From Methanomassiliicoccaceae archaeon (GTDB lineage: Archaea; Thermoplasmatota; Thermoplasmata; Methanomassiliicoccales; Methanomethylophilaceae): a stretch of DNA of 64,000 nucleotides. Positions 1-17,186 of the stretch are shown one piece after another (positions within the stretch are counted from its first letter, which is position 1; each line of letters begins with the position of its first letter). The position numbers and the translations under genes were made by a program. The notes under the pieces are model-generated. The model worked only from the letters and a program-made list of their open reading frames with translations, made no database searches and was not told the origin of the DNA. The stretch spans positions 1 to 64,000 of the forward strand of contig WRJJ01000003.1 in NCBI GenBank assembly GCA_009778575.1. Direction: 5' to 3'.

Positions 1-1960
1 TCCGGAATTACCGTCAGGTTGGCGTCGTCTCCGTCAGCGTAGGTCACGGTCACCGTTGTTCCAACAGGCACGAGTATGCCTTCGACGAATGTTGATCCGT
101 CGGCTCCTGCCGTCACGGTCAGGTTCCAGTGGTCTCCCGGCGTTGTCGTTGTGAAGAACGACTCCACAGCGTGGTCTGTATCCATGGTTATGATATAGGG
201 CGTGATGGCCAGTTTGTCAGCCGCGTCCAGGGTCCACTTCTGCAAGATGTGTCCCGAGGCGGGCGTCGCAGTCATGTTGGCATCGTCTCCGTCCGCGTAG
301 GTCACGTACGCAGTTGTTCCGGCAGGTACGAGAACTCCGTCGACGAAGGTCGAGCCGTTCATTCCCGCCGTAACGGTAAGGGTCCAATGACCTCCCGCTG
401 TTGTCGTTGTGAAGAACGAAACTGCCGCGTGGTCCGCGTCCATGGTTATGACGTATGGTGTTATGGCTGGTTTGTCAACCGTGTCCAGGGTCCACTTCTG
501 CAAGACATATCCGGAGGTTGTGGTCGCCGTCAGGTTGGCATTGTCTCCGTCCGCGTAGGTCACGGTCGCCGTTGTTCCAACAGGCACGAGTATGCCTTCA
601 ACGAACGTTGAACCGTTGGCTCCGGCTGTTACCGTCAGGTTCCAGTGGTCTCCGGGGTTGGAGGTCGTGAAGAACGATGCAACCGCATAGTCTGTATCCA
701 TGGTTATGACGTACGGAGTGATCGCTGCCTTGTCGGCACCGTCGAGTGTCCACTTATCGAATGCGAATCCCGAGTCCGGAGTTGCCGTCAGGTTGGCGGA
801 TGCTCCGTCAGCGTAGGTCACGTACGCAGTGGTTGTTGCGGGCACGAGTATGCCTTCAACGAATGTTGATCCGTCGGCTCCCGCCGTAACGGTGAGGGTC
901 CTGTGGTCTCCAGACGAGGATAACGTGAAGAACGACTCCACATCGTGGTCGGCGCCCATGGTTATGACGTATGGTGTGATCGCTGCCTTGTCGGCGGAGT
1001 CAAGTGTCCACTTCTGCAGGGCATATCCCGTTGCGGGGGTTGCCGTCATGGTGGCATCGTCTCCGTCCGCGTAGGTTACCGTTGCCGTTGATCCGGCAGG
1101 TACGAGAACTCCGTCGACGAAGGTCGAGCCATTCATTCCCGCCGTAACGGTGAGAATCCAGTGGTCTCCGGGGTTGGAGGTCGTGAAGAACGACACCGCC
1201 GTGTGGTCCGCATCCATGGTTATGACATAGGGCGTTATGGCCGGTTTGTCAACCGTGTCCAAGGTCCACTTATCGAACGCGAATCCCGAGTCCGGAATTA
1301 CCGTCAGGTTGGCGTCGTCTCCGTCAGCGTAGGTCACGGTCACCGTTGTTCCAACAGGCACGAGTATGCCTTCAACGAATGTTGATCCGTCGGCTCCCGC
1401 CGTAACGGTGAGGGTCCTGTGGTCTCCGGACGAGGATAACACGAAGAACGACTCCACATCGTGGTCGGCGCCCATGGTTATGACATATGGTGTGATCGCG
1501 GCTTTGTCAGCCGTGTCCATTACCCACTTCTGCAGTGCATATCCCGTTGCGGGGGTTGCCGTCATGGTGGCATCGTCTCCGTCCGCGTAGGTTACCGTTG
1601 CCGTTGATCCGGCGGGCACGAGAACTCCGTCGACGAAGGTCGAGCCGTTCGCTCCGGCCGTAACGGTGAGGATCCAGTGGTCTCCCGGCGTTGTCGTTGT
1701 GAAGAACGACACCGCCGTGTGGTCCGCGTCCATGGTTATGACATACGGCGTTATTGCCGGTTTGTCAACCGTGTCCAGGGTCCACTTCTGGAGCGCGTAT
1801 CCGCCGCTCGGGGTCACCGTCAGCGTTGCCGACGCTCCGTCCGCGTATGTGAACGATGCCGTCGTTCCCGCAGGCACTAGCACTCCGTCCGCATATGTGG
1901 AACCGTTGGCTCCCGCCGTAACGGTAAGTGTGTAGTAACTGCCGGTGACAAACGTCACGG
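1..1960 (-). repeat. At least 7-8 tandem in-frame 258-bp (86-aa) repeats, continuing off-window
   Basis: Anchor GGCACGAG/GGTACGAG/GGCACTAG occurs at 67, 325, 583, 841, 1099, 1357, 1615, 1873: exact 258-bp spacing every time. Confidence 0.95.
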
Positions 1961-4900
1961 TAACTTCCATGTTGGCGGAGATGGCGGTCGATGTGGGGTT
2001 GATGATGCTCGGGGCCCCGCCGTCTATCTCAAACTGCTCGAAATAGTACTGCGTGGGCGTCGAATCGGGTATCGCTTTGAGCAGGATGGATCCTACGCTC
2101 TTGCGCACGACGACCGCTTCTGTGTCCCCGGTTGTTCCGGATACGGACCCAAGGACCGTCGTTCCGTCGCTTCCGCTTATTACCTGCACCGTTCCGTCCC
2201 CGACGAAGGTGACCTCCACGATGTAGCCGGTTGTCGCGACCAGTTGGTTGCCGCCCTTTGTCTCGATGAAGTAACCGTATCCGCTCGTGATGTACGTGGG
2301 GTTCTTCGACGCTCCTCCCACCGCTCCTCCGCCGCTTCCGTCAATGAGGACGAGGTCTTCGCCCGCATATCCCGTGGGCAGACCGCTTCCATCAAAGCTC
2401 ACGTAGACATTTATGCCTATCGTTGAAGTGCCGGTCACCTTTGCGTAGGTGAAGGGAGTGGTAGCTAAGTCCAGATCGCCGGCGAATTTCAGACGCGTTC
2501 CATCATACCCTCCGGGCGTGAAATTACCGACAATCAAACTGTTAACGACAAACGTGATATCATTTTCTGCGTTGCCGAGAGTCACATTCCCATAGATGCT
2601 GCCGTTGTTCACGAGAGTGGTTGGAACCGTGTCGCTTTCGCCGTATATCCCGAACGCTTCATTGCTACCGGCTGCACCGCCGATGGTGTTGTTGTTGGTA
2701 ACGCTGCCGCCTGCCAGAAGATATATGCCAAAGCTGCTAACAATCATGCCGCTTATGTCACCGTTGTTCACTATCGTGCCGGGTACGCCGAGGTAGACGC
2801 CGCAGCTGCCGCCTTTGACCGATCCGCCGGAATAGTTGGTTATGGTCACAACCGGGGAGACTCTGTCAAAGACATATATTCCAGATGATGTCGGGAATAC
2901 CCCGCTGGTGCCTTCTATCTCACCGTAGTTGTTGACGGTGGTGCTTCTCGTGCCCTCCGTAAGGATACTAAGTCCTCTTTCCGTACCTTTTATGACACCG
3001 CCGGCGGAGTTGTTTATCGTCGCGTTGCCGCTACCTACCGCGTTGGTGGCGTGGATGCTCATGGCCCATGAGCCGGAGGCAACGGCGGTGATCGTACCGG
3101 AGTTGTTAACGACCGAACCGGCGACGGGGACGGAGATTCTCACCGCCTCCTGTTGACCGGTAATGGTGCCGGTGTTGTCCAACGAGCAGGAGATATCTAT
3201 TCCGCGGCTCCCGGTGCCGGTGATCGTGCCGGAGTTGTCTATATAACTGTGGGAATTGAAATTCCCATATACGCCGATCCCTCCAGTGATCGTGCCGGAG
3301 TTGATGAGATCCCCACCATAAACGAAATACACTCCGCAAGCGTTGCTGATCGTGCCGCCTGTGATCGTTCCGGCGTTGTTGAGGGTGGAGCGGAGAGTGG
3401 ACTCGTTGCTTCCACGGAACGCTCTCACACCTTCTAACACACCGCCGGCGTGGTTGTAGATGGTGTTGCCACCTCCGTCCGAAACTGCGGCGTAGAGTCC
3501 TATAGAAGCTATGGTCATTTCTATATCGCCGTAGTTATGGACCACGCTGCCTGTGCTGTCTGAAGAAAGGATTATGCCTGCTGAGACCCCCTTTATTGAT
3601 CCCCTGTATGGTGCAGAGAATACGCTACCGTCGCTTGGATCGAAGTACGGGAAGGCATAGTTGTTGACGGTAATGACCCCTCCGAAGGAGATGGGTACGG
3701 TGTTCACAGCTTCGATAGATCCATAGTTGTTGATAGTTCCTGTACTTCCCGGCGAAAGATATAAGGTGGTATTGCTAGCGGCATTTTTGAGTATACCCGT
3801 TATGCCGTTGACGATCTTTACGCCTGTTCCGACGCCATTGATCACAGCTCTGCTGCTTTCAATACTGGCTGTGTTGATAACCGTACAGTTGTTGCCGGTG
3901 ATGTTGATCCCATTGTTGGCAGCAGCGCCCGTCATAGAGAGCTTACCCATACCGGATCCGCCCGCCGGAGGCTGAGAGTACACCGACAGGTTGCTGCCGG
4001 TAGGCACGGTTATGCCGTTCGTCACGGTCAGCGTCACTCCGTTGGCAATGATTATCTGCACATTGCCGGAGATGGTCAGGCTTGAGATCGTGACGTTTTG
4101 CGTCACGTAGTACCAGCCTGCCGCCAGCGAGGTGATGCCGGAAGATGTGGAATCGATCACTGTGGTCGATCCGCTGTGGGTACTCGTGCTGCCGTTCACT
4201 TCAACGTAGTCTATCCCCAGCGTTGCGATCAACTGGTCGCCGGTCGACCCCACCAATATGGAGAAGGTATAGCCTCCCACGGTGTATGTCGGGTTCTTCG
4301 GCGTGCCTGTAACGGTTTTGCCGACGACCGTGCTCCCGTCGATCAGTATGATGTCCGCTCCGGTGTAAGGTGGAGATGTCGGGGGGGCGCTGAAACTAAC
4401 GTAGACATTTGCGGTGCCTATGTTGGAGTTGCCAGTTATCGTCGCAAAAGTAAGATCCACCGGATCCAGAGTGCCGCTGAAGTCAAGCGTCGTTCCCGGG
4501 TTCGTTCCCGTGCTGAAGTTGCCGTTAATGAGACTGTCAACCGTGAGCGTTATTTCATTCGGAGCGTTGGCGAGGGTCACGTTGCCGTGGATCGCGCCGC
4601 TGTTCGTAAGAATGACCGCGTCTGCGGTGCTGACTGCGGTGCTGCTAGCAAATATGCCTTGGGTAACGCCGCTGATGGTGCTGCTGTTGGACACTTCGCC
4701 TCCTGCGTCCAGATATATTCCGTAACTGGTCGTGTGCTTGCCGCTTATGTCACCGAAGTTGACGACCATGCCTCCATTACCGAGATGAATGGCTTTGTTG
4801 CCCCCTTCCACGGTTCCGCTGGCGTAGTTCAAAATGGTACAATCTGCGCTGGAATATATGGCTCCGGTATTGGATGACGTCCCGCTGCCGGTTATGGCAC

Positions 4901-7900
4901 CATAGTTATTTACGGTACCTCCCGCGCTGAGATAGAGACCATTGAGACCCTGGATCACTCCCCCGGGTTGGTTGTTGACGGTAATGGCAACAACGGAGGA
5001 ATTTATGCCTGACGCATTAGGTGAGGTACTGGTGCTGGATATTGTGCCTGAGTTGCCGATAGTACCGCCGTTTCCGAGACGGATACCGCTGCCGACGTCG
5101 CCTTGGATCACTCCTCCGGCGTGGTTGTTGATGATCACGCCGGTGCTGTTGGAGTATATGCCAAAGCCATTGCCGACCGGTCCGGTACCGACGATCGTGC
5201 CGTGGTTGGAAACAGTACCGTTAGCTATAAGCTGGATACCGTCATTGACCCCTGAGATCGTGCCTCTGTATGGTGCAGAGAATGCGCTGCCGTCGCTTGG
5301 ATCGAATTGCGGGAAGGCATAGTTGTTAATCACCGCTCCGCTGCCGCTGCCTTGAACGTTTATTCCGTTAGCAGTGCCGATGATCAACCCATAGTTATGG
5401 ATAGTTCCACTGTTGGATATGATTATACCGTCTCTGGGTGCGATAAGGGCACTGTGTATCGTACCCGTGACACCGTTGACGGCTTTGGAGTCTATGGTAT
5501 TACCCATGCCCACCATGCCGTCGATGAAAGCAGTGTTGATAAAGGTACGGTTGGAGGGGGTACCTGCGAAGTGTATGCCGTTTTGCTGGATCTCCACCTT
5601 ACCTATGTCAGCCGCAACTGTGTGCGGCTCCGAATAGATAGCGAGGTTGTTTCCAGTCTGAACTTGGAGCCCGCTCCCGCCTGAACCGGCCACCGTAAGC
5701 GTGGCATTGTTGGCGATCACGATGTTGGCATCACCGTTTATGAACAGTACGCCTGACACCGTGACGTCCTCCACGACATAGTACCAGCCTGCCGGAATGG
5801 TCTGGTTACCGCTGCCGAAGTATGCCGAATCGATAACAGTGAACGTTCCGCCATAATTCTGCGTGCTGCCGTCCACTGCAACGTAGTCGATCGAGGTCAT
5901 CGGCCCGAAGGTTGCCTCGGCGGCCATATTGGCGCTTATCGGAAGATTCAGTACCTTGTTGCTGTATCCGGAGTATGTGACCGTGTCCACGACGAACTTC
6001 TCGAAGTAGTTCGTCCCGTTATTGGCGGTGAACGTCACATCGCTGACACTGTTGCTGATATTGATGGTCGTGCCCGAGGTGTAAACGGTCCCGTGGGGTC
6101 CGAAGAGATTATCCTCCACCGACACCGTTCCGTTTCCGACGATATTGACCGTCAGCACATAGAAAGATGCGATGCTCGGTTCGAAGTACGCATCCAAGAG
6201 CAGATCGGTGCTTATGGGCACCGTAGTGGGGTTCATATAGCTGTCGAAGCGGTTCGTGGTCGACGGAGGGTCAACTGTGATGTCGAATCTCTCGAATTTC
6301 TCCGTAATATCAACTGCGGTGATGGTTATGCTCGTGACCGTCTTGAGTACATATACCGTACTTGTGTACGACACGTTCGGACCGCTGACGTCCGGGTTCT
6401 TCACAACGCGGCTGTATGTCACATCGTCTATCGTGAGGGAACCGTCGCCGTATATGGTGACCTCGATCACGTTGTATTTGGAGAGGTCGTCGAAATACGC
6501 AGTCACATACGTGACGTCCATAATATCTTTCACAAACGGGTTGCTGGCATTTGTCCCCGCGGAGGTATCGAAATGGTCAAAGGCCATGCCTGTGGCGGGT
6601 ACCGCGGTCATGAAGAGATTATCCTCCGGCGTCCAGGGGAAATAGGCCTTTGAGGGCGATACATTCACCACACATGTTCTGCCGTAGTTCTCAAGTATCA
6701 CAATACCGTCGCCGACTATGGTCACATCTATGATATATGGAGCTGCCGCAATGCCGAAATGCGCTATTATCGTCAGATCGCTGTTGACGGCCACCTTCGT
6801 GGGGTTCACATACATATAATCCGACGTTTCGGCAACATAGAACGATTCGAAATAGTCAGTGCCTTCGTTTGCGGTGAGGGTTATGCTGGTAATGGTCTTC
6901 GGCACATACACAGTGCCGCCGGGCGCCGTGATGTTATATGTGGTCGATCCGACCAGAACGTCGACGTCGCTGTCGTCGATGCTGTAACAGGCGACGGTAA
7001 TGTTGATAACATAGCCTTCCACCATAGTGTAGTCCACCGAGGACATGTCGGACGATACGGTGCCGAGCGCGTCAGGGAACTGGCTGACCGGGTACGGTAT
7101 GTATCCGCTCTTTGACAGCCCCGTGATCGTTACGTTGGAGCCCGAAGGCACCGTTATCTCGTATTCGCCCGTGGTAGCGTTGGATAAGACGGAATATGTC
7201 GTACTGCCTATCATGTAATAGACGGTAACTCCGCCCAGAGCGACCGGTGTGCCTGTGGTGTTGTCGTATATCGTACCGGATATGTCCACGTTCACGGCCA
7301 GTTTCACCGGCAGCCTCGCGTCGGAAACTCCGCCGTTGTATGCGTTGTAACCATTCATTGCAGTGATCGATCCGATCACCGGGCTGTCGTCGTGAACGCG
7401 CACTATTGTTCCAAGCAAAGTGGAACTGCTGTCGTAGGCCTTGATGTTGTCTAACCTGGCAGGCGCCGCGCCCGTGCTGTACGCGAAGGACATGAAGTCC
7501 GCCGGCAGAGTAAAGGTGTCTATCACGGTTGACGTGCCGTTAGCGTAAACATCCATTGTTGTGTCTGACGATGCGATAGGTGTGTTGAGGGTCGCATTGA
7601 CAAAGTAACCGGTGCCTGTGACGGTTGAAATGTGGATCGCCGGCATATCGACCGCATATGCCCTCACGTCCGCCTCTGCGTTCAACGTCAGCGCTATGCT
7701 GCCGCTTAAAAGACCGTTGGTGCCGCCGCCGAATCCGATTCCCGCGCCGTTTGCGCCATAGCCGCTCATCCCCGAGGATGCGGTGATCGTGCCGTCGTAA
7801 ATATAGATCGTACCGTTTCCGCCGCCCGCGCCGCCGCTGGCGGAACCGCCGCCGATGCCCGCGCCGCCTTTGCTGGTCGCGGTGATCGTGCCGTCGTAAA

Positions 7901-10784
7901 TATAGATCACACCGCTTCCGCCGCCCGCGTTCACGCCTGTGTGGCTGAAGCCGCCGCCGATTCCCGCGCCGTTATTGCTGGTCGCGGTGATCGTGCCGCT
8001 GTTGATGGATATCACTCCGCCGTCTCCGCCGCCGATCGAGCCGCTGGAACTGGCTCCGCCGCCGATACCCGCGCCGTCTTGAGCGGTTGCGGTGATCGTG
8101 CCGCCTTCTATTGTGATGAAACCGCCGTGCTGAGTCGATGCGCCGCCGATGGCCGCACATTCGAGGTCGCTGGTCGTCACCGTCAGCGAATCGTCGCTGC
8201 TGCCGGGGTTGGTGTAGCTGTCTATTGTGATGGTTGCGACACCTGACAGACCGCTGTCGCCGGCGAGTATGCTGCCGTGGACATAGCTGTCGCCCTCAAT
8301 GAGCAATGTAATTTCCGCATCATTTTCGAGGATTATGCTGCCTATTAGGTCTATATCAGATATAATTAAGGTCAGAGATACGCCGCCCTCGATGAAGATC
8401 TCATTGAATATCGATGTCCCGTGCTTAGGTTCGCTGCCGGGACTGGCCAGCAGACCTGTCTGCTTTATGAGATAGGTATTGCCGTCCGCCGCCGATGAGA
8501 ACGTCAGAGTACGGTCGCCGATCACCGAGCCGCCCGGCGATCCGCCGAACTGAACACTGTACGGGCTCATTCCCGCTGATATTGTGTAGTCTGCCGTACT
8601 TGTGATGGTCTCGGACAGATCTATCACGTCTGTATAAGGTGAATCTGTCGTGAATGGCACCACGGGGCTGTAGAATGTGAAAGCTATCGATGATATCGTT
8701 ACTTCCAGGTACGTCTGCACGTAGTACGTTGTGCTCATTGAGAGCCCCGTCAGGTTCTCCGTTATCTGAGACGTGGTCCATGATGACCACGGAAGGTCTG
8801 TCACGGAAGAGTTCAGAGCGCCGTTGCCGTCCACCGAAGATGATGCGGAATAAAGGAATCCGCCGGCGACATAGTTGACCCCCGTCACTACATTCTGCCC
8901 GTTGCTGTTTATGTCAGCGGTGGTGTACAATATGTTGGACGCGCTCGGAGTACCGGGTACCGCGGTCATGAACCTGACCGGGAGGACCCCGTTGCCTGCG
9001 CTGCTGTTGTGAATATTATAATCTGTTAGTATGGACATAGAGTACGGATCGCCGTTATCGGAGTCGCGCACGACTATGCCCGTGTATGTTGTGCCGTTCG
9101 TAGCGTAGATACGGTCTATTGTGGAAGAACCGCCCGTGCTGTATGCGAAGCCTCTGAAGCCGCCGGGAAGATTAAGAATCGTTGGAGGGTTTGACATATT
9201 CTTGCCAATGAACGCTTCGAGCGTCACCGGTCCTCCCGATATCGCTGCGATCAAATTGGCGTTCGTAACGTATCCACCGCCGGAGATGTTGCCGGCAGCG
9301 TGGATAGCAGGAAGGGTTGTCCCCTGCGAATATGCTTTGACATCTGCTGTGCTGGAGATACTCAAAGATGTACCGACAACGAGACCGATCTGTGTTGGAG
9401 AGGAAGAACCAGCGCCTATACCGGCGCCTCCGCCGTTGCTGGTTGCAGTGACCTTTGCGTTTCCGGTCACGGTTAGACTGCCGCCTGCGCCACCCCTAAA
9501 AATTGATCCTCCAGAGACGCCTGCGCCGCCGCCGATACCAGCGCCTCCGCTGTTGCCTGTTGCAATAACAGTTGCGTTGTCTGTTATGATGACAGTGCCG
9601 CCGCTACCACCAAACGCTATGGCTGAAGGTTGACTGCCTGCGCCGCCGCCTATGCCTGCGGATCCACCGCCTGTTGCGGTCACGACTGCGTTACCGCTTA
9701 TAGTGATGTTGCCGCCGTCACCGCCGCCGGTGACCGTGCCATTTGCTGCGCTGCCGCCGCCGATGGCTGCGGCGCTTGTATTGCTGAGAGCATATCCTGA
9801 GCTCATAGTGGTCGCATTTACCACTGCATCGCCGCTGATATTGATCGTGCCGCCGGCACCGCCGGCACCGCTCAAGAGATATGTAAAGCCACCGCCGATA
9901 CCTGCGCCTCCGCGACCGGTCGCATTTACCACCGCATTGCCGCTGATATTGATCGTGCCGCCGTCACCGCCGCGGCCCCCGCTGCTGTATTGACTACCGC
10001 CGCCGCCGATGCCTGTGCCGTTGGAATTGCCGAGCGCATTCACAGTGCCGCCAGTAATAGTAATGTTGCCGCCGCTGCCTGCGGTTGCCGAGCTTGTACT
10101 ATTACCACCGCCGCCGATACCTGCGGCACCATAAAAGTGGGCGTTTGCATTCACGGTGCCGCCTTTGATAGTTATGTTACCTGCATCCATAATCCCAATG
10201 GCATTAGTAGCACCGCCGATGGCTGCGCCTTTGTTTGTAGCTCCTGACATAGAAAGCGTGCCATCGCTGCTGCCGGTGTTGGGGCTGGATGCACTGTCGA
10301 TGATGAGTGATGCGTTGGTCGGCACATAGATTTTTGTAAGTTCGTTGGTGCCGCTCAGAAGAAGAGTGACCGTTGCCCATGGTTCAATATGTATAGGGAA
10401 CTCAATGCCGGGCGATTCTCGGATACTGATGTTGTTCAGTGTCACCGTGGTGTTCACGCTGGCTTGGAATTGAATACTATAATAAAGGTTGTTGCCACCA
10501 GTTAGTTCATAACTATAGGAGTTTGCGTTTGTGTTGAAGACCAATATGTATGGGCTCACACCGGTGCCTGCACCGCTGAGCGTCCACCCGAGACCAGGGT
10601 TACTGGCAGGAGGTGAGGTCAGGTTGATCGTGTGGTCGGCCGCCGACGAGTCGTCGGAACCTCCCGGGACAAGCTGTACGACGGCGACAGACGCCATCAT
10701 TACTACTAGCGCAAGCACCGCATACATGAACAGGGCTTGCTTGCCGGATTTGTTCTTGACTATTCTTTTTATTTGTGTTTTCAT
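1..10784 (-). CDS. Giant secreted adhesin-like protein, C-terminus beyond window start: signal peptide, Gly-rich GAGIGGG beta-helix-like repeats, duplicated NNxGxI-type modules, then InlB-B-like (Flg_new_2-like) 86-aa tandem repeats
   Basis: Minus-strand ATG at 10784 (MKTQIKRIVKNKSGKQALFMYAVLALVVMMASVAVVQLVPGGSDDSSAADHTINLTS...), frame read open to position 3; repeated motifs GGAGIGGG, INNSGTITG, GYALQKWTLDTVDKPAITPYVITMDADH. Not in ORF track because no stop occurs in the window. Confidence 0.93.
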   Translation of the reverse strand, partial: MKTQIKRIVKNKSGKQALFMYAVLALVVMMASVAVVQLVPGGSDDSSAADHTINLTSPPASNPGLGWTLSGAGTGVSPYILVFNTNANSYSYELTGGNNLYYSIQFQASVNTTVTLNNISIRESPGIEFPIHIEPWATVTLLLSGTNELTKIYVPTNASLIIDSASSPNTGSSDGTLSMSGATNKGAAIGGATNAIGIMDAGNITIKGGTVNANAHFYGAAGIGGGGNSTSSATAGSGGNITITGGTVNALGNSNGTGIGGGGSQYSSGGRGGDGGTINISGNAVVNATGRGGAGIGGGFTYLLSGAGGAGGTINISGDAVVNATTMSSGYALSNTSAAAIGGGSAANGTVTGGGDGGNITISGNAVVTATGGGSAGIGGGAGSQPSAIAFGGSGGTVIITDNATVIATGNSGGAGIGGGAGVSGGSIFRGGAGGSLTVTGNAKVTATSNGGGAGIGAGSSSPTQIGLVVGTSLSISSTADVKAYSQGTTLPAIHAAGNISGGGYVTNANLIAAISGGPVTLEAFIGKNMSNPPTILNLPGGFRGFAYSTGGSSTIDRIYATNGTTYTGIVVRDSDNGDPYSMSILTDYNIHNSSAGNGVLPVRFMTAVPGTPSASNILYTTADINSNGQNVVTGVNYVAGGFLYSASSSVDGNGALNSSVTDLPWSSWTTSQITENLTGLSMSTTYYVQTYLEVTISSIAFTFYSPVVPFTTDSPYTDVIDLSETITSTADYTISAGMSPYSVQFGGSPGGSVIGDRTLTFSSAADGNTYLIKQTGLLASPGSEPKHGTSIFNEIFIEGGVSLTLIISDIDLIGSIILENDAEITLLIEGDSYVHGSILAGDSGLSGVATITIDSYTNPGSSDDSLTVTTSDLECAAIGGASTQHGGFITIEGGTITATAQDGAGIGGGASSSGSIGGGDGGVISINSGTITATSNNGAGIGGGFSHTGVNAGGGSGVIYIYDGTITATSKGGAGIGGGSASGGAGGGNGTIYIYDGTITASSGMSGYGANGAGIGFGGGTNGLLSGSIALTLNAEADVRAYAVDMPAIHISTVTGTGYFVNATLNTPIASSDTTMDVYANGTSTVIDTFTLPADFMSFAYSTGAAPARLDNIKAYDSSSTLLGTIVRVHDDSPVIGSITAMNGYNAYNGGVSDARLPVKLAVNVDISGTIYDNTTGTPVALGGVTVYYMIGSTTYSVLSNATTGEYEITVPSGSNVTITGLSKSGYIPYPVSQFPDALGTVSSDMSSVDYTMVEGYVINITVACYSIDDSDVDVLVGSTTYNITAPGGTVYVPKTITSITLTANEGTDYFESFYVAETSDYMYVNPTKVAVNSDLTIIAHFGIAAAPYIIDVTIVGDGIVILENYGRTCVVNVSPSKAYFPWTPEDNLFMTAVPATGMAFDHFDTSAGTNASNPFVKDIMDVTYVTAYFDDLSKYNVIEVTIYGDGSLTIDDVTYSRVVKNPDVSGPNVSYTSTVYVLKTVTSITITAVDITEKFERFDITVDPPSTTNRFDSYMNPTTVPISTDLLLDAYFEPSIASFYVLTVNIVGNGTVSVEDNLFGPHGTVYTSGTTINISNSVSDVTFTANNGTNYFEKFVVDTVTYSGYSNKVLNLPISANMAAEATFGPMTSIDYVAVDGSTQNYGGTFTVIDSAYFGSGNQTIPAGWYYVVEDVTVSGVLFINGDANIVIANNATLTVAGSGGSGLQVQTGNNLAIYSEPHTVAADIGKVEIQQNGIHFAGTPSNRTFINTAFIDGMVGMGNTIDSKAVNGVTGTIHSALIAPRDGIIISNSGTIHNYGLIIGTANGINVQGSGSGAVINNYAFPQFDPSDGSAFSAPYRGTISGVNDGIQLIANGTVSNHGTIVGTGPVGNGFGIYSNSTGVIINNHAGGVIQGDVGSGIRLGNGGTIGNSGTISSTSTSPNASGINSSVVAITVNNQPGGVIQGLNGLYLSAGGTVNNYGAITGSGTSSNTGAIYSSADCTILNYASGTVEGGNKAIHLGNGGMVVNFGDISGKHTTSYGIYLDAGGEVSNSSTISGVTQGIFASSTAVSTADAVILTNSGAIHGNVTLANAPNEITLTVDSLINGNFSTGTNPGTTLDFSGTLDPVDLTFATITGNSNIGTANVYVSFSAPPTSPPYTGADIILIDGSTVVGKTVTGTPKNPTYTVGGYTFSILVGSTGDQLIATLGIDYVEVNGSTSTHSGSTTVIDSTSSGITSLAAGWYYVTQNVTISSLTISGNVQIIIANGVTLTVTNGITVPTGSNLSVYSQPPAGGSGMGKLSMTGAAANNGINITGNNCTVINTASIESSRAVINGVGTGVKIVNGITGILKNAASNTTLYLSPGSTGTINNYGSIEAVNTVPISFGGVITVNNYAFPYFDPSDGSVFSAPYRGSIKGVSAGIILSSDSTGSVVHNYGDIEMTIASIGLYAAVSDGGGNTIYNHAGGVLEGVRAFRGSNESTLRSTLNNAGTITGGTISNACGVYFVYGGDLINSGTITGGIGVYGNFNSHSYIDNSGTITGTGSRGIDISCSLDNTGTITGQQEAVRISVPVAGSVVNNSGTITAVASGSWAMSIHATNAVGSGNATINNSAGGVIKGTERGLSILTEGTRSTTVNNYGEIEGTSGVFPTSSGIYVFDRVSPVVTITNYSGGSVKGGSCGVYLGVPGTIVNNGDISGMIVSSFGIYLLAGGSVTNNNTIGGAAGSNEAFGIYGESDTVPTTLVNNGSIYGNVTLGNAENDITFVVNSLIVGNFTPGGYDGTRLKFAGDLDLATTPFTYAKVTGTSTIGINVYVSFDGSGLPTGYAGEDLVLIDGSGGGAVGGASKNPTYITSGYGYFIETKGGNQLVATTGYIVEVTFVGDGTVQVISGSDGTTVLGSVSGTTGDTEAVVVRKSVGSILLKAIPDSTPTQYYFEQFEIDGGAPSIINPTSTAISANMEVTVTFVTGSYYTLTVTAGANGSTYADGVLVPAGTTASFTYADGASATLTVTPSGGYALQKWTLDTVDKPAITPYVITMDADHTAVSFFTTTTPGDHWILTVTAGANGSTFVDGVLVPAGSTATVTYADGDDATMTATPATGYALQKWVMDTADKAAITPYVITMGADHDVESFFVLSSSGDHRTLTVTAGADGSTFVEGILVPVGTTVTVTYADGDDANLTVIPDSGFAFDKWTLDTVDKPAITPYVITMDADHTAVSFFTTSNPGDHWILTVTAGMNGSTFVDGVLVPAGSTATVTYADGDDATMTATPATGYALQKWTLDSADKAAITPYVITMGADHDVESFFTLSSSGDHRTLTVTAGADGSTFVEGILVPATTTAYVTYADGASANLTATPDSGFAFDKWTLDGADKAAITPYVITMDTDYAVASFFTTSNPGDHWNLTVTAGANGSTFVEGILVPVGTTATVTYADGDNANLTATTTSGYVLQKWTLDTVDKPAITPYVITMDADHAAVSFFTTTTAGGHWTLTVTAGMNGSTFVDGVLVPAGTTAYVTYADGDDANMTATPASGHILQKWTLDAADKLAITPYIITMDTDHAVESFFTTTTPGDHWNLTVTAGADGSTFVEGILVPVGTTVTVTYADGDDANLTVIP
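2420..5930 (-). repeat. Internal tandem duplication of a module of about 1.66-1.68 kb (about 555 aa)
   Basis: Module pairs: IDYVAVDGST..TVIDS..AGWYYV (about 5.9 kb) and IDYVEVNGST..TVIDS..AGWYYV (about 4.2 kb); NYAFPQFDPSDGSAFSAPYRGTISGV (about 5.3 kb) and NYAFPYFDPSDGSVFSAPYRGSIKGV (about 3.6 kb). Confidence 0.85.
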
Positions 10785-11393: not shown

Positions 11394-11685
11394 TAACATT
11401 GCCAGATAATTTTTTGTCAGGATATTTGACATGATAAAACTCATCAAAACAGGCAATGTCAGGATATATAAGGCAAACGGGTCATAAGCGAATAGTTGTA
11501 GCACGGCAACCGACGCTTGCGTTTCCGGGCGGCCGCGCCGGCAATTCCCGCATTCTGCGAATGATCAAAGGCTGCTTGCAGATCTAGCTCTCGGATACTC
11601 GGAAAGCTCTTTGCGGACAGGAATAAATGAATAGAGATCGCTCTGAAAAGGAGCATCCCCATTCAACCAATTGTTTACAACAACG

Positions 11686-11692
11686 ATATATA
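11686..11692 (+). promoter_or_regulatory. TATA box of small antitoxin-like gene copy 1
   Basis: CAACGATATATACC about 39 bp upstream of ATG 11725; same block recurs before copy 3 (12857-12863) and in degenerate form before copy 2. Confidence 0.6.
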
Positions 11693-11724
11693 CCAAAGTA
11701 ACAATCAAAAAGACAGAGAGTAAC

Positions 11725-11958
11725 ATGCCCATCGAATCTTTCTACGAGATGTTGGTGATAGACACCCCCGAAAAGGCGGAAGCGTTGGTGAGAGCCTTCG
11801 AGGCCGCAGAGAAGAGGGGACCCTATGTACCTTCGTGCGACATAATGAAAAAACTTGAGGAAGATAAGAGGATCATGGAAGAGTATTTCAAAGAGCGCAA
11901 CGCCGAAAAAGAAAAAGATAATCCGGGCGATCCTTTACCAAACGGTCGCGTCATCTGA
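11725..11958 (+). CDS. Small antitoxin-like protein, copy 1 (77 aa, MPIESFYEMLVIDTPEKAEALVRAFEAAEKRGP...)
   Basis: One of three paralogs; start moved from the track's 11671 because the upstream in-frame stretch contains the TATA-like promoter. Confidence 0.75.
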   Translation: MPIESFYEMLVIDTPEKAEALVRAFEAAEKRGPYVPSCDIMKKLEEDKRIMEEYFKERNAEKEKDNPGDPLPNGRVI

Positions 11959-12055
11959 ACTTTTTGGCAGGTGCAAATCTCCCCATTATGCTAACTGCTA
12001 ATTGTACACAACAACGATTTATACTAATGTAACAATCAAAAACGCAGAGAACAAC

Positions 12056-12262
12056 ATGCCCATCGAATCATTCCATGAGATGCTGGTGATAGACACCCCC
12101 GAAAAGGCGGAAGCGCTGGTGAGAGCCTTCGAGGCCGCAGAGAAGAGAGGACCCATCGAGCGCAAATACAACGTGATGAAAAAACTGGAAGATGACAAGA
12201 AGGCTTTGGAAGAAATATGGGCAAAAAGGAAAGCGGAAAAAGAAAGAGGTAATTCAGAGTGA
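12056..12262 (+). CDS. Small antitoxin-like protein, copy 2 (68 aa), overlapping the GNAT gene
   Basis: Same MPIESFHEMLVIDTPEKAEALVRAFEAAEKRGP block; stop TGA overlaps GTG start of next gene (GTGA). Confidence 0.75.
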   Translation: MPIESFHEMLVIDTPEKAEALVRAFEAAEKRGPIERKYNVMKKLEDDKKALEEIWAKRKAEKERGNSE

Positions 12263-12798
12263 CCCTCTTTCTTTGTCGGCTTTACGAGCTGCTGTCCACA
12301 ACAGATGAGAACGATCTGCAGTCTTTGTTATCGTCCTTTCATTGTTCAGCGGAACCCGCCGCTGAGAACTTCTTAAAGAACACCGCCATCCGACATGAGA
12401 AGAATGGTATCTCCAGAACATACCTCTTTTTGGAGCAGGATCGCGAGGACAAGGACATTGTCGTGGGGTTCTTCACACTAGCCGTCAAATGCCTCTCCGT
12501 AAACAAACAGCACAGTATCCCTGAAGAGATATTCGAGCAAATGAATGTTGACAAAGGGGTCGCGCAGGCATACCTGCTTGGCCAGCTGGCAAAAGCGGAC
12601 GGCACGGAGAAGGGATTCGGGAGGGCGATGATAGAGGTTGCTTTTGAGATCTTCTCAAACGGCAACGATATGTTCGGGTGCAGAGTTGTCCGCCTCGACT
12701 GCCGGGACAAGCTTCTGGGGTATTACGAATCCTGCGGATTCACTTCTGCAGGCAAGAACAGCGGCGGGACCCTCAACCAAATGGTAGCCATTATCTGA
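12259..12798 (+). CDS. GNAT-family acetyltransferase, TacT/AtaT-like toxin candidate
   Basis: LLGQLAKADGTEKGFGRAMIEVAFEIF (acetyl-CoA-binding region) and YYESCGF motif; 4-nt overlap with the preceding small gene. Confidence 0.75.
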   Translation: MTLFLCRLYELLSTTDENDLQSLLSSFHCSAEPAAENFLKNTAIRHEKNGISRTYLFLEQDREDKDIVVGFFTLAVKCLSVNKQHSIPEEIFEQMNVDKGVAQAYLLGQLAKADGTEKGFGRAMIEVAFEIFSNGNDMFGCRVVRLDCRDKLLGYYESCGFTSAGKNSGGTLNQMVAII

Positions 12799-12895
12799 AC
12801 TCCTGACAGGGTGCGAGTCTTTTCAGAATGCTAACTGCTAATTGTATACAACAACGATATATACCAAAGTAACAATCAAAAACATAGAGAACAAC

Positions 12896-13129
12896 ATGCC
12901 CATCGAATCTTTCTACGAAATGTTGGTGATAGACACCCCTGAAAAGGCGGAAGCGTTGGTGAGAGCCTTCGAGGCCGCAGAGAAGAGGGGACCTTATGTG
13001 CCTTCGTGCGACATAATGAAAAAACTCGAGGAAGATAAGAAGATCATGGAAGAGTATTTCAAAGAGCGCAACGCCGAAAAAGAAAAAGATAATCCGGGCG
13101 ATCCTCTACCAAACGGTCGCGTCATCTGA
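12896..13129 (+). CDS. Small antitoxin-like protein, copy 3 (77 aa)
   Basis: Differs from copy 1 by one residue (KRIME/KKIME) over 77 aa. Confidence 0.75.
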   Translation: MPIESFYEMLVIDTPEKAEALVRAFEAAEKRGPYVPSCDIMKKLEEDKKIMEEYFKERNAEKEKDNPGDPLPNGRVI

Positions 13130-13351
13130 GGTCCGGTGCCCCGCTGCACTTCATATCTGAATAAAGGGTCGACACTTATTGAACACATTTCAGACGGGAA
13201 CATACCTGCATTCCGAGACCGCACATACAAAATGGTGCATGATATGCAATGAACGGCATGAGCGACCAGAGGGCCGTTCACAGGCACCCCGATGCCCAAC
13301 GGCCGTTCCGGACCGCAAAAGATATTAAATGCGGTCACCCATTGAAAGGCG

Positions 13352-14209
13352 ATGAGGAACAAGCTCCTGCTGGTGTCATTCGTGGTCTCTCTGTTGGTAC
13401 TGACAGTATCATTTACGTCAGCAGATGCGGAAGACCCCGTCAGCCTTTCCAACTATTACGTCGAAGGTTTTGTGGCCGATACCGGCAGGGTGCCCATGGA
13501 AGGAGTGACCGTTTCCGTCATGGACAGGAACGGTACCGTCTTCCACGGCGAAACGAACGGCAGCGGATTCTTCAGCGTGGGGATCGCTACCAACTCCGGC
13601 CTCATGATCTCTTTCACGACTTTCGGATACTCCATGGTGACGTGCCCCAACACGACCTTCCCTCCGGGTTCCGAATATATGTCCATTAATCTTTCCGGGG
13701 TCAAGTACAACAGCGCGACCCGCACGTACACATTGACGGGAACGATCGAGGATATGCAGTGCGCGATAATGAAAACTTCCGACGGGACCGTAAGGGGGCA
13801 GGTGACCTTCGGAACGACCCCCGTCAAGAATGCCACCGTTACCCTTGTACCGGTCAACGGCGAGGGGACGTATTCGTCGCATACCGGCGACAGCGGACAC
13901 TATGAGATCGTATGCCCCACCGGAACGTATACTTTAACGGCGGGCAGCCAGGGCTTCAACCAAAGCGATGCCTTCCAGGTAAACGTGACCGGAAGCCCGT
14001 CAACGGTCAACGTCACATTGGTGAAGAGCGAGCTGAAGAAACATCTGGGTCTGGATATGGCGCACGTACTGATGCTGGTGGGCGCGATAGTCGGCATATT
14101 GCTTGCGGTCGCCGCATGGTTCATCGGCAGACGCATGAACGGATCCAACAGCCTCGAGATAATCGACGACAGCGTTCCCGAAGAGGACGACGATGTCAGA
14201 CGTCCCTGA
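13352..14209 (+). CDS. Secreted/membrane-anchored protein with carboxypeptidase-regulatory-like (CarboxypepD_reg-type) domains
   Basis: N-terminal signal peptide, GxVxxxxxPVxNATVTLVP and GHYEIVCPTGTYTLTAGSQGF patterns, C-terminal TM helix AHVLMLVGAIVGILLAVAAWFI. Confidence 0.75.
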   Translation: MRNKLLLVSFVVSLLVLTVSFTSADAEDPVSLSNYYVEGFVADTGRVPMEGVTVSVMDRNGTVFHGETNGSGFFSVGIATNSGLMISFTTFGYSMVTCPNTTFPPGSEYMSINLSGVKYNSATRTYTLTGTIEDMQCAIMKTSDGTVRGQVTFGTTPVKNATVTLVPVNGEGTYSSHTGDSGHYEIVCPTGTYTLTAGSQGFNQSDAFQVNVTGSPSTVNVTLVKSELKKHLGLDMAHVLMLVGAIVGILLAVAAWFIGRRMNGSNSLEIIDDSVPEEDDDVRRP

Positions 14210-14762
14210 TGAGCCTTTTTCTTACGTTATCGTAAAGGCTGCCGCCCTCCGAGTCCATTGCCACCGTGAGGGGTCCCATCCTTTCCACCTTTAATATCCA
14301 CATCGCCTCGGCCATGCCCAGGTCCTCCCATTCTGCGCCTTGGACCTCGACCACCGATTCCGCTATGGAGACCGCGGTCCCTCCCACCGCCGCAAGATAA
14401 ACGCAGCCTGCCTCCCGCATGGCATCCCCCACTTTCTCCGACATCCCGCCTTTTCCGATTACCGCCCGTATCCCGAACCTCTTTATCATCTCCGGTCCCA
14501 AGAGATCCATCCTTGAGCTGGTGGTGGGGCCGGCGGCCACCGTTCTCCACCTGCCGCCTTCTTTGACCATGATCGGGCCGCAGTGGAAGAGGATCGAATT
14601 CTCAAGTCCTTCCGGTATCGGCTTTCCCCCGCGGGCGTATTCGACCGCCCTCATGTGCATCTCGTCCCTCCCCGTTACCACTTCGCCCGTAAGGTATACC
14701 GTGTCCCCTGCCCTGAGTTCCCTTACGGCCTTCTCGCTGAGAGGCGTCCTCAATTCCCTCAC
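14196..14762 (-). CDS. Fumarate hydratase, beta subunit (class I, two-subunit type)
   Basis: GDTVYLTGEVVTGRDEMHMR, ILFHCGPIMV, GPTTSSRMD; GTG start overlapping upstream stop (GTGA). Confidence 0.85.
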   Translation of the reverse strand: MRELRTPLSEKAVRELRAGDTVYLTGEVVTGRDEMHMRAVEYARGGKPIPEGLENSILFHCGPIMVKEGGRWRTVAAGPTTSSRMDLLGPEMIKRFGIRAVIGKGGMSEKVGDAMREAGCVYLAAVGGTAVSIAESVVEVQGAEWEDLGMAEAMWILKVERMGPLTVAMDSEGGSLYDNVRKRLIRDV

Positions 14763-15628
14763 AGGTCCGCCCCCTGTTCGTATTCTATACCTGTTTCGGT
14801 TATGCGCGCCACCGCCCTTCTGGTGGCCCAGCATCCTATGCTCACCGCGACCGGAAGGCTTGCCGTGTGGCAGCATGCGGCCTTTATCTTCACTCCGAGG
14901 ACCGTGGTCGATCCCCCCAGCCCCATGGGCCCGAGGCCGCTCCCGTTCAGTTTGACGAACAAGTCTTCTTCCATCTCTTTCAGAACGGGGTCGCCGTTCT
15001 CTCTGTCAAGGGGGGACATCAGCGCCCGCTTCGACATCGCCACGCACTCATCCGCGGTGCCGCCGATGCCGACCCCGATCACGCCCGGCGGACAGGGCCT
15101 TCCTCCGGCATCCAGGACCGAGTCGACAATGAATCTTTTTATCCCCTCTATTCCGTCCGAAGGGTTCAGCATGGCCGATCGCGTCATATTCTCCGAACCC
15201 GCCCCTTTGATAAGAACGGCGATCTCAAGGAAGTTGTCATCGGTCGGGATGTAATGTATTGAGGGCATGCCTTCTCCGAGGTTGTCTCCCAAGTTCTTTC
15301 TTGTAAGCGGGTCGACCGTATTGGGTCTCAGAGGGACCGTTTCGGTGGCGGCCCTTATCCCTTTGATAATATCATTTCTGATGGACGCGTCGAACCTCCC
15401 CTTCACATAGAAAGTGGGTATCCCCGTATCCTGGCACATCGGACGTCCCAAGACCTCCGCTTTCTTCACGTTATCCATTATCGCCCCGAGCTGAGTCCTC
15501 GCCAGGGGATCCGATTCCCAGCCGGCGGCGGCCTCCAGAGCCCAGCCGATGTCCGGCGGGAGCTTTGTGTTGGCCGCTTTCAGAAGATTCGCCACCACGC
15601 GGTCGATGGGCTCAGGCAGTTTTATCAT
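14759..15628 (-). CDS. Fumarate hydratase, alpha subunit
   Basis: PMCQDTGIPTFYVKG, IPTDDNFLEIAVLIKGAGSENMTRSAMLNPSDG, VIGVGIGGTADECV; start at MIKLPEPIDR rather than the track's 15805. Confidence 0.85.
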   Translation of the reverse strand: MIKLPEPIDRVVANLLKAANTKLPPDIGWALEAAAGWESDPLARTQLGAIMDNVKKAEVLGRPMCQDTGIPTFYVKGRFDASIRNDIIKGIRAATETVPLRPNTVDPLTRKNLGDNLGEGMPSIHYIPTDDNFLEIAVLIKGAGSENMTRSAMLNPSDGIEGIKRFIVDSVLDAGGRPCPPGVIGVGIGGTADECVAMSKRALMSPLDRENGDPVLKEMEEDLFVKLNGSGLGPMGLGGSTTVLGVKIKAACCHTASLPVAVSIGCWATRRAVARITETGIEYEQGADL

Positions 15629-15804
15629 AACGCCTCTACGACATTTTGCAAATAAAGGTTCTTCGCAGTTTTGCGCCGTGAGTTGAGAGGGATACGCCTC
15701 GGACGATCGTGCGCCGTTTTGCATCGTTCTCTCATGTTCTCGGATCCAACGGAGCAGTATATGCATCCAGAAAACGCACTGGAAAAATAGTGTAGCCCTC
15801 GTCA

Positions 15805-15873
15805 AAAACTTACCAAATAGGGAAATGAAAACTTACCAAATAGGGAAATGAAAACTTACCAAATAGGGAAATG
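15805..15873 (+). repeat. Three perfect tandem 23-bp iterons AAAACTTACCAAATAGGGAAATG
   Basis: Copies at 15805-15827, 15828-15850, 15851-15873, about 40 bp upstream of the ATPase gene at 15915. Confidence 0.97.
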
Positions 15874-15914
15874 ATATGCCACTTTTCAATAAGTTAAAAT
15901 AACCATATGATGTT

Positions 15915-17186
15915 GTGAATGTAGTGAAAAGAAAATATCTGGACAGAATTGTAGATAGAGAGTTGGACCGAGCTCTTGAGTCTTCCGGCGCGGTATTAAT
16001 CAAGGGCCCCAAATGGTGCGGAAAAACACGTACCGCAGAAGAGCGGGCCGCCAGCAAAATATTGATGCAGGATCCGAATAACACAGAACATTACAAGATG
16101 ATCGCGGACAGCGCGCCCAGCCTTCTTCTGGAGGGTGACGTACCGAGGCTGATCGACGAGTGGCAGATAGCCCCCGTTCTATGGAATGGTGTGCGTTTCG
16201 AAGTGGATCAGCGCGGAGAGAACGGACAATTCATACTCACCGGTTCCGTCACGCCGAAGAATGACCCCACGCTACACACCGGAACAGGGCGCATAACGCG
16301 CCTGTTCATGCGCACAATGACACTGTTCGAATCTCTCGAATCCAGCGGAGAGGTCTCACTGAGAACATTGTTCAACGGAGAGGCCGACATCAAAGGCAGA
16401 TCGCCGCTTACGATCGACGGTCTTGCCTTTGCGTTGGCCAGAGGCGGGTGGCCCCGCTCTGTGGGCGAAAAAGAATCCATAGCTCTGCGTCGTGCGTACG
16501 ATTACGTGGATTCTTTGGCGGAGACCGAGATCTCCAGTTCCGACGGCGTGGAGCGGAACCCCGCCCGCATCCGTAATCTCATGCGGTCTCTGGCAAGGAA
16601 TGTATCTACGGCGGCAAAACTGACAACGATCAGGGAAGATATGGAGGGGGACGACATCATATCTGACAAGACCGTAACATCTTACATAAATGCGCTCAGA
16701 CGCATGTCCGTGGTCGAAGACCTGCCTGCCTGGTGTCCGGCTGTGCGTTCCAAGACCGCTATAAGAACATCCCCCAAACGTCATTTCGTTGACCCATCCA
16801 TTGCAGTCGCGGTCCTCCGTATGTCGCCGGAAGGGTTGCTGAAAGATTTCAAAACGTTCGGTCTGCTGTTTGAATCGCTGTGCGTGCGGGACCTTAGGGT
16901 ATACGCACAGGCAATGGACGGAGAAGTGTTCCACTACCGCGACAGGAGCGGTCTGGAAGCGGATGCGATCGTACACCTTAAGGACGGCCGGTGGGGTGCC
17001 GTTGAAATAAAGACCGGCGCCAAAGAAACGGAAAAGGCCGCCGAGAACCTGATAAAATTAAAGGACAGGATCGACACGGAAAGGATGACCCCGCCGTCTT
17101 TCCTCATGGTGCTGACGGCATCGGAATATGCATACCGCCGCAGGGACGGCGTATATGTAGTGCCTATCGGGTGTTTGAGGGACTGA
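15915..17186 (+). CDS. AAA_14/DUF4143-type ATPase, paralog of 36385-37650
   Basis: AVLIKGPKWCGKTRTAEERA (Walker A), PRLIDEWQ (Walker B), C-terminal RRRDGVYVVPIGCLRD shared with the paralog. Confidence 0.85.
   Translation: MNVVKRKYLDRIVDRELDRALESSGAVLIKGPKWCGKTRTAEERAASKILMQDPNNTEHYKMIADSAPSLLLEGDVPRLIDEWQIAPVLWNGVRFEVDQRGENGQFILTGSVTPKNDPTLHTGTGRITRLFMRTMTLFESLESSGEVSLRTLFNGEADIKGRSPLTIDGLAFALARGGWPRSVGEKESIALRRAYDYVDSLAETEISSSDGVERNPARIRNLMRSLARNVSTAAKLTTIREDMEGDDIISDKTVTSYINALRRMSVVEDLPAWCPAVRSKTAIRTSPKRHFVDPSIAVAVLRMSPEGLLKDFKTFGLLFESLCVRDLRVYAQAMDGEVFHYRDRSGLEADAIVHLKDGRWGAVEIKTGAKETEKAAENLIKLKDRIDTERMTPPSFLMVLTASEYAYRRRDGVYVVPIGCLRD

What the first reader, a model, noticed from the sequence alone, without database searches (positions are those of the whole stretch)
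11660..13135. Candidate archaeal GNAT toxin-antitoxin locus with three copies of the putative antitoxin
Seen: three paralogous small genes (77, 68, 77 aa) share MPIESFxEMLVIDTPEKAEALVRAFEAAEKRGP; only the middle copy is coupled (GTGA overlap) to a GNAT acetyltransferase. The outer copies differ from each other by one residue but diverge from the middle copy after the shared block. Established: TacT/AtaT-type GNAT toxins are encoded with a small upstream antitoxin, usually an RHH protein, and acetylate aminoacyl-tRNA. Inference: the small protein is an antitoxin of a different family, and the flanking solitary copies could be decoy/anti-addiction antitoxins or remnants of tandem duplication.
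Basis: partly seen in the sequence, partly recalled or inferred. Interest (0 to 1): 0.82.

Follow-up and report, generated by a model that had tools for sequence, protein, structure and literature searches.

The report
Archaeal GNAT toxin-antitoxin locus, RHH-less antitoxin
A gut archaeon carries a look-alike of tRNA-acetylating toxins paired with a tiny antitoxin-like protein that no protein database names, plus two extra antitoxin copies left over from a pair whose toxin gene was deleted; the same pair occurs on bacterial plasmids and phages, so it looks like a widespread, untested cousin of the TacT/AtaT systems.

Summary
Confirmed: three paralogous small genes (77, 68, 77 aa); only the middle one overlaps a GNAT gene (GTGA). 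The GNAT is a TacT/AtaT/KacT relative: its 15 best PDB profile matches and 36 best Foldseek matches are all solved GNAT toxins, and the catalytic Tyr aligns with Y156. In 148 genomes of the order, 79 of 83 assessable full-length GNATs have the small gene directly upstream; about 40 small genes stand alone, intact GNATs almost never do.

The small protein has no detectable RHH (no family hit, two-helix model). It belongs to a cross-domain 'MATxSF' family encoded directly before related GNATs on Acinetobacter plasmids and Streptococcus, Staphylococcus and other phages (profile match E 2e-7 to 2e-11). In a tree these GNATs separate from DUF1778-coupled ones at 100/100.

The outer copies descend from a small-GNAT pair that lost its GNAT: their last 10 codons are a frameshifted GNAT 3' end. 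They remain under purifying selection (6 synonymous : 1 nonsynonymous).

Best reading: a toxin-antitoxin-like module of a sister family to TacAT, with an antitoxin lacking a DNA-binding domain and with retained toxin-free antitoxin copies. Toxicity, tRNA acetylation and neutralisation are untested.

The parts
11669..11724 (+). promoter/leader of copy 1; TATA-like GATATATAC at 11685-11693
   Evidence: 5' part of the 290-nt repeat; TATA-like box conserved in ten upstream regions of the clade
11725..11958 (+). small gene copy 1 (77 aa), solitary antitoxin-like
11929..11958 (+). frameshifted remnant of a GNAT 3' end inside copy 1 (codes DPLPNGRVI and stop)
   Evidence: aligns with 12768-12798 with a one-base gap; 18 of 5000 shuffles as good for the coding tail; 0 of 2000 when the downstream spacer is included; 0 of 2000 against the GNAT end of relative L122
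11959..11999 (+). spacer homologous to the one after the GNAT gene
   Evidence: 30 of 42 columns identical
12000..12055 (+). promoter/leader of the small gene-GNAT operon; TATA-like GATTTATAC at 12016-12024
12056..12262 (+). small gene copy 2 (68 aa), coupled antitoxin-like
   Evidence: AlphaFold: two helices 15-31 and 40-65
12259..12798 (+). GNAT toxin-like acetyltransferase (179 aa); Y156 aligned with AtaT Y144
12799..12839 (+). spacer after the GNAT gene, homologous to 11959-11999
12840..12895 (+). promoter/leader of copy 3; TATA-like GATATATAC at 12856-12864
12896..13129 (+). small gene copy 3 (77 aa), solitary antitoxin-like
13100..13129 (+). the same GNAT-derived tail in copy 3
   Evidence: inside the 290-nt repeat with copy 1, 96% identical

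Best explanation
A toxin-antitoxin-like module of a sister family to TacAT/AtaRT. The GNAT enzyme moves acetyl from acetyl-CoA to the alpha-amine of charged tRNA and so blocks translation (inferred from fold and catalytic Tyr). The small protein, translated first from the same operon, binds the GNAT and keeps it inactive (inferred). Unlike TacA/AtaR it has no RHH and no other recognisable DNA-binding domain: it looks like a bare toxin-binding polypeptide of two helices with a conserved N-terminal end M-(A/P)-x-x-S-F. Shown here: the pairing, the fold relationship, the separate clade, the lack of a detectable RHH, and that the two outer copies come from a complete pair whose GNAT was deleted. 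Duplication of that toxin-less unit with its promoter then placed copies on both sides of an intact pair (order of events inferred). The outer copies are still under purifying selection, so they probably still make antitoxin that raises the dose or buffers the toxin (inferred).
For: GNAT: the 15 best PDB profile matches are AtaT, KacT, GmvT, TacT, TacT2, TacT3 and AtaT2 entries, E 1e-10 to 3e-5; model pLDDT 94.7, the 36 best Foldseek matches are GNAT toxins; Y155/Y156 invariant in 32 relatives. Pairing 79 of 83 assessable full-length GNATs, short or overlapping gaps. About 40 solitary small genes against one ordinary intact solitary GNAT plus two remote ones and one interrupted; at least six solitary small genes sit beside GNAT remnants. 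Outer copies: GNAT-derived tail and 6 synonymous to 1 nonsynonymous difference, p = 0.0013. Same partner family in bacteria and phages, E = 1.8e-7 and 2.5e-11, and one clade of GNATs opposite the DUF1778-coupled ones at 100/100. Pair at different genomic sites in three close relatives.
Against: No experiment shows toxicity, tRNA acetylation or neutralisation. The small protein has no recognisable toxin-binding motif and no detectable relation to the TacA neutralisation domain. The AlphaFold model of the small protein alone is not a compact fold (pTM 0.37) and no complex could be modelled. One full-length GNAT (G043:C36) has no small gene within 295 nt upstream. Selection on the outer copies rests on seven differences; one of the tandem copy pairs in G071 does not show it.
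Confidence: 0.72

Rival explanations
1. The GNAT is an ordinary acetyltransferase (of protein N-termini or small molecules) and the small protein is its regulatory subunit, activator or substrate; it is not a toxin.
For: No toxicity data; the small protein's conserved extreme N-terminus could be an acetylation substrate. PMC9177977 itself allows that such GNATs have other functions.
Against: Closest solved structures are all aminoacyl-tRNA-acetylating toxins. An activator or subunit should be lost with its enzyme, yet the small gene survives GNAT deletion in several lineages and stays under selection. Patchy distribution (59 of 148 genomes), varying sites, and presence on plasmids, phages and satellites fit a TA module better.
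Confidence: 0.17
2. The module is a defence or superinfection-exclusion device: infection inactivates the small protein and frees the GNAT to stop translation. The solitary copies would be counter-defence or autoimmunity buffers.
For: Occurs in phages and phage satellites, in several records next to the lysin or integrase gene.
Against: No PADLOC family matches; no defence island seen around the window copy; no relatives in IMG/VR with the archaeal profile. This would be a use of the TA module, not a different machine.
Confidence: 0.2
3. The outer copies are dead leftovers of toxin loss, with no present function.
For: They carry a frameshifted GNAT tail and no GNAT.
Against: Intact ORFs and promoters, 6 synonymous to 1 nonsynonymous difference between them; tandem copies in G050 and G067 show dN well below dS. 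Only seven differences, so not excluded.
Confidence: 0.15

Closest known systems
TacAT / AtaRT / KacAT / GmvAT (GNAT toxin with DUF1778 RHH antitoxin, type II TA)
   Same: GNAT fold and catalytic Tyr, antitoxin-like gene first, overlapping operon, mobile and multicopy
   Different: Partner has no RHH or DUF1778 and no detectable TacA-type neutralisation domain; GNAT lies on the other side of a 100/100 branch
GNATs outside the 'true TA clade' with short upstream ORFs lacking DNA-binding domains (noted, untested, in PMC9177977)
   Same: Short divergent ORF directly before a TacT-like GNAT, no DNA-binding domain, separate clade
   Different: The paper's sequences were not compared here, so identity with this group is likely, not shown. 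Here the short ORFs are united into one family, with evidence of toxin loss and antitoxin retention
Phage families phrog_1758 (acetyltransferase) with phrog_6339 / phrog_3291 (unknown function)
   Same: Window GNAT matches phrog_1758 at 1.2e-32; phage partners are MATxSF proteins homologous to the archaeal ones
   Different: The archaeal small protein itself does not match those two small families directly; chromosomal, duplicated, with solitary copies
GNAT-DUF4065 (VcaAT) and GNAT-Xre pairs
   Same: TacT-like or other GNAT with a non-DUF1778 partner (PMC9177977, PMC2701414)
   Different: The partner here has neither domain

Membership tests
TacAT/AtaRT (GNAT-DUF1778 type II TA) | GNAT toxin fold and catalytic Tyr of TacT/AtaT/KacT | tested here: met
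TacAT/AtaRT (GNAT-DUF1778 type II TA) | antitoxin gene directly upstream, overlapping or close | tested here: met
   4-nt overlap in the window; 79 of 83 assessable in the order
TacAT/AtaRT (GNAT-DUF1778 type II TA) | antitoxin with RHH / DUF1778 DNA-binding domain | tested here: not met
   no Pfam or NCBIfam hit in 27 members; model without ribbon strand; no Foldseek hit
TacAT/AtaRT (GNAT-DUF1778 type II TA) | antitoxin neutralisation domain homologous to TacA C-terminus | tested here: not met
   hhalign probability 0.6%, score within shuffled range
TacAT/AtaRT (GNAT-DUF1778 type II TA) | GNAT inside the DUF1778-coupled clade | tested here: not met
   100/100 branch separates seven GNATs of DUF1778-type operons (six annotated DUF1778, one hypothetical partner) from 24 others
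TacAT/AtaRT (GNAT-DUF1778 type II TA) | acetylation of aminoacyl-tRNA, growth arrest, neutralisation | not testable with these tools
   needs bench work
Type II toxin-antitoxin systems in general | conserved two-gene module, antitoxin tolerated alone, toxin rarely alone | tested here: met
Type II toxin-antitoxin systems in general | autoregulation through an operator | tested here: inconclusive
   conserved element beside the TATA-like box but no consistent palindrome and no DNA-binding domain
MATxSF-GNAT family (phage and plasmid pairs) | small partner homologous to the phage/plasmid MATxSF proteins | tested here: met
   hhalign E 1.8e-7 against bacterial/phage members alone, 2.5e-11 with outer archaeal members
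MATxSF-GNAT family (phage and plasmid pairs) | GNAT of the same clade and of phrog_1758 | tested here: met
   phrog_1758 at 1.2e-32; tree
GNAT-Xre or GNAT-DUF4065 pairs | HTH or DUF4065 partner | tested here: not met
   no such domain in the partner

The most novel reading that the evidence does not exclude
The MATxSF proteins are a separate, cross-domain class of GNAT antitoxin without any DNA-binding part. Their N-terminal end (M-A/P-x-x-S-F at residue 1 in all aligned members, although my ORF picking favoured this) enters the acetyl-acceptor site as a mimic of the aminoacyl end of tRNA, so the toxin is plugged or acetylates its own antitoxin. Toxin-free copies then act as heritable immunity genes that outlive the toxin.
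Probability: 0.12. Interest if true: 0.82.

Novelty: new variant of a known kind. Interest (0 to 1): 0.63.

Why it matters
PMC9177977 left open whether GNATs outside the DUF1778 clade, preceded by short ORFs without DNA-binding domains, are toxin-antitoxin pairs. This locus ties such short ORFs into one family from methanogens to phages and adds genome evidence (repeated toxin loss with the antitoxin kept and selected) that they behave like antitoxins. That makes the question directly testable, would bring tRNA-acetylating toxins into archaea, and raises how an antitoxin without a DNA-binding domain controls its operon.

Tried and rejected
1) RHH antitoxin: no support from families, PDB profiles, model or Foldseek. 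2) My own idea that the small protein is the bare C-terminal neutralisation domain of TacA: hhalign gave nothing. 3) In-frame fusion of the outer copies to the GNAT C-terminus: the tail is GNAT-derived DNA but one base out of frame. 4) A different toxin beside solitary small genes: the downstream genes are unrelated or on the other strand, no recurrent partner. 5) DUF1778 search in 61 relatives: none, but no control genome rang either, so absence is not shown. 6) IMG/VR scans: no relatives. 7) Operator palindrome: TTGTATACAA is perfect only in copy 3 and not conserved as a palindrome. 8) tblastn of a small protein against plasmids: no hit, too short; the bacterial partners were found upstream of GNAT hits instead. 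9) Plasmid and phage hits in C. difficile were left unread as not needed.

Full report
OBSERVATION. The three small ORFs and the GNAT ORF are present as described. Copies 1 and 3 of the small gene are 96% identical over 290 nt and copy 2 is 73% identical; the repeat includes about 55 nt of promoter and leader. The 41-nt spacers after copy 1 and after the GNAT gene are homologous too. These are the only three small genes found in the window's genome; one further GNAT homologue lies at a contig end, 42% identical and interrupted by TAA. The organisms named place the window near Candidatus Methanoplasma (Methanomassiliicoccales).

THE GNAT. Single-sequence Pfam support is weak. A 30-member profile finds 18 PDB sequences at E <= 0.01; the best 15 are GNAT toxin entries (GmvT, AtaT, AtaT2, TacT, TacT2, TacT3, KacT), 1e-10 to 3e-5 (names). 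The AlphaFold model (pLDDT 94.7, pTM 0.89) has GNAT toxins as its 36 best Foldseek matches. In the alignment with AtaT the second Tyr of YYESCGF, Y156, falls on Y144, the residue changed in the 'AtaT Y144F' entries. Y155 and Y156 are invariant in 32 relatives.

THE SMALL PROTEIN. Consensus MATxSFYEMLVIDTPEAAxxLxxAFExAExRGP with a variable second half. No Pfam, NCBIfam or PADLOC family and no credible PDB relative. The model has helices 15-31 and 40-65, no strand, an uncertain first ten residues and pTM 0.37; Foldseek finds nothing. An RHH domain is therefore not supported. Comparison with the TacA-type neutralisation domain failed as well.

PAIRING. Profiles of both proteins were run on 148 genomes of the order: 61 have the small gene, 59 the GNAT. 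Of 87 full-length GNATs, 78 have a small gene within 450 nt upstream on the same strand. The nine others: four lie at contig edges; G052:C28 has a divergent small gene by eye; G086:C13 is interrupted by a stop; G086:C36 and G113:C10 are remote GNATs; G043:C36 is a real exception. So 79 of 83 assessable cases are paired. Conversely 49 small genes have no GNAT directly downstream, about 40 after removing contig ends. They include tandem runs (G071 four copies, G050, G061, G067) and copies beside GNAT remnants: G070 (30 C-terminal residues, 77% identical), G064 (18, 72%), G051 (24, 71%), G103 (35, 40%), and G080 twice (N-terminal remnants, 37 residues at 95% and 25 at 48%). The rest have no remnant and no recurrent other partner. 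Close relatives G057 and G063 carry the pair at other genomic sites.

ORIGIN OF THE OUTER COPIES. The last 30 nt of copy 1 (11929-11958) align with the last 31 nt of the GNAT gene with a one-base gap, so the DNA is read in another frame. The match continues through the stop codon into the spacer: local score 42 against a maximum of 26 in 2000 dinucleotide shuffles; coding tail alone 18 of 5000; against the GNAT end of relative L122, 0 of 2000. Simplest history (inference): a pair lost its GNAT by an internal deletion that also removed the small gene's stop codon, and the toxin-less unit was then copied to the other side of the intact pair. Between copies 1 and 3 there are 6 synonymous and 1 nonsynonymous differences (dN 0.005, dS 0.145; binomial p 0.0013). 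Tandem copies in G050 and G067 also show dN well below dS, one pair in G071 does not. Seven differences are good but not overwhelming evidence that the outer copies still work.

BEYOND ARCHAEA. Related GNATs occur on plasmids and phages. In twelve inspected records (three Acinetobacter plasmids; Streptococcus, Staphylococcus, Latilactobacillus and Solobacterium phages or satellites; a rodent-gut phage) a 54-58-residue protein beginning MATxSF or MATKTF lies directly upstream, in some overlapping the GNAT gene. A Helicobacter plasmid has a different upstream ORF. Archaeal and bacterial/phage small proteins are homologous by profile comparison, E = 1.8e-7, and 2.5e-11 when outer archaeal members bridge. 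A 31-sequence tree separates GNATs of DUF1778-type operons from the rest at 100/100; archaeal and bacterial members are not resolved from each other with good support. The window GNAT matches phage family phrog_1758 at 1e-32; phage partners match phrog_6339 and phrog_3291, of unknown function.

LITERATURE. PMC9177977 describes GNATs outside the 'true TA clade' preceded by short ORFs that lack predictable DNA-binding domains, and leaves their nature open. PMC2701414 predicted RHH- and Xre-coupled GNATs. The open-access papers searched gave no description of this pair in Methanomassiliicoccales or phages; most subscription papers are not in that library.

REGULATION. Ten upstream regions of the clade share a TATA-like GATAWATAC and an adjacent CTAACTGTATACA-like element. 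As the small protein has no recognisable DNA-binding domain, what reads this element is unknown; no consistent palindrome was found.

VERDICT. Shown: fold, pairing, clade, no detectable RHH, deletion origin of the outer copies. Supported: selection on the outer copies. Inferred: toxicity, tRNA acetylation, direct neutralisation and the role of the solitary copies.

Noticed in passing
window 3-10784 (-): Giant ORF of at least 3594 aa, open at the window start, with degenerate repeats of about 110-135 nt spacing at 9.4-10.2 kb; possibly an adhesin-like surface protein.
   Followed up: no
window 15805-15874: Three perfect tandem copies of AAAACTTACCAAATAGGGAAATGA (23-nt spacing) between an enzyme gene pair read on the minus strand (14196-15805, looks like fumarate hydratase) and a DUF4143 ATPase gene (15915-17186, +); possible regulatory repeats.
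   Followed up: no
L078 (G101:C4) 2041-2364: Two antitoxin units fused in one ORF; the second unit lacks the MATxSF end but keeps the EDMVIDTPEAAANL block.
   Followed up: partly
L070 (G071:C60) 2659-3943: Four tandem small genes at a contig end; the contig G071:C8 begins with the end of a small gene followed by a GNAT and may be its continuation.
   Followed up: partly
L073 (G090:C47) 1895-4467: Three consecutive small gene-GNAT pairs in tandem.
   Followed up: no
L118 (G086:C36) upstream of the GNAT: A remote GNAT whose open frame starts with a stretch like the small protein (LENDIVVDDPASLSELMSLV), possibly a natural fusion.
   Followed up: no
L203 (Helicobacter heilmannii plasmid) 930-1208: A GNAT on the same side of the tree has a different, longer upstream partner, which may mean partner exchange.
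   Followed up: no
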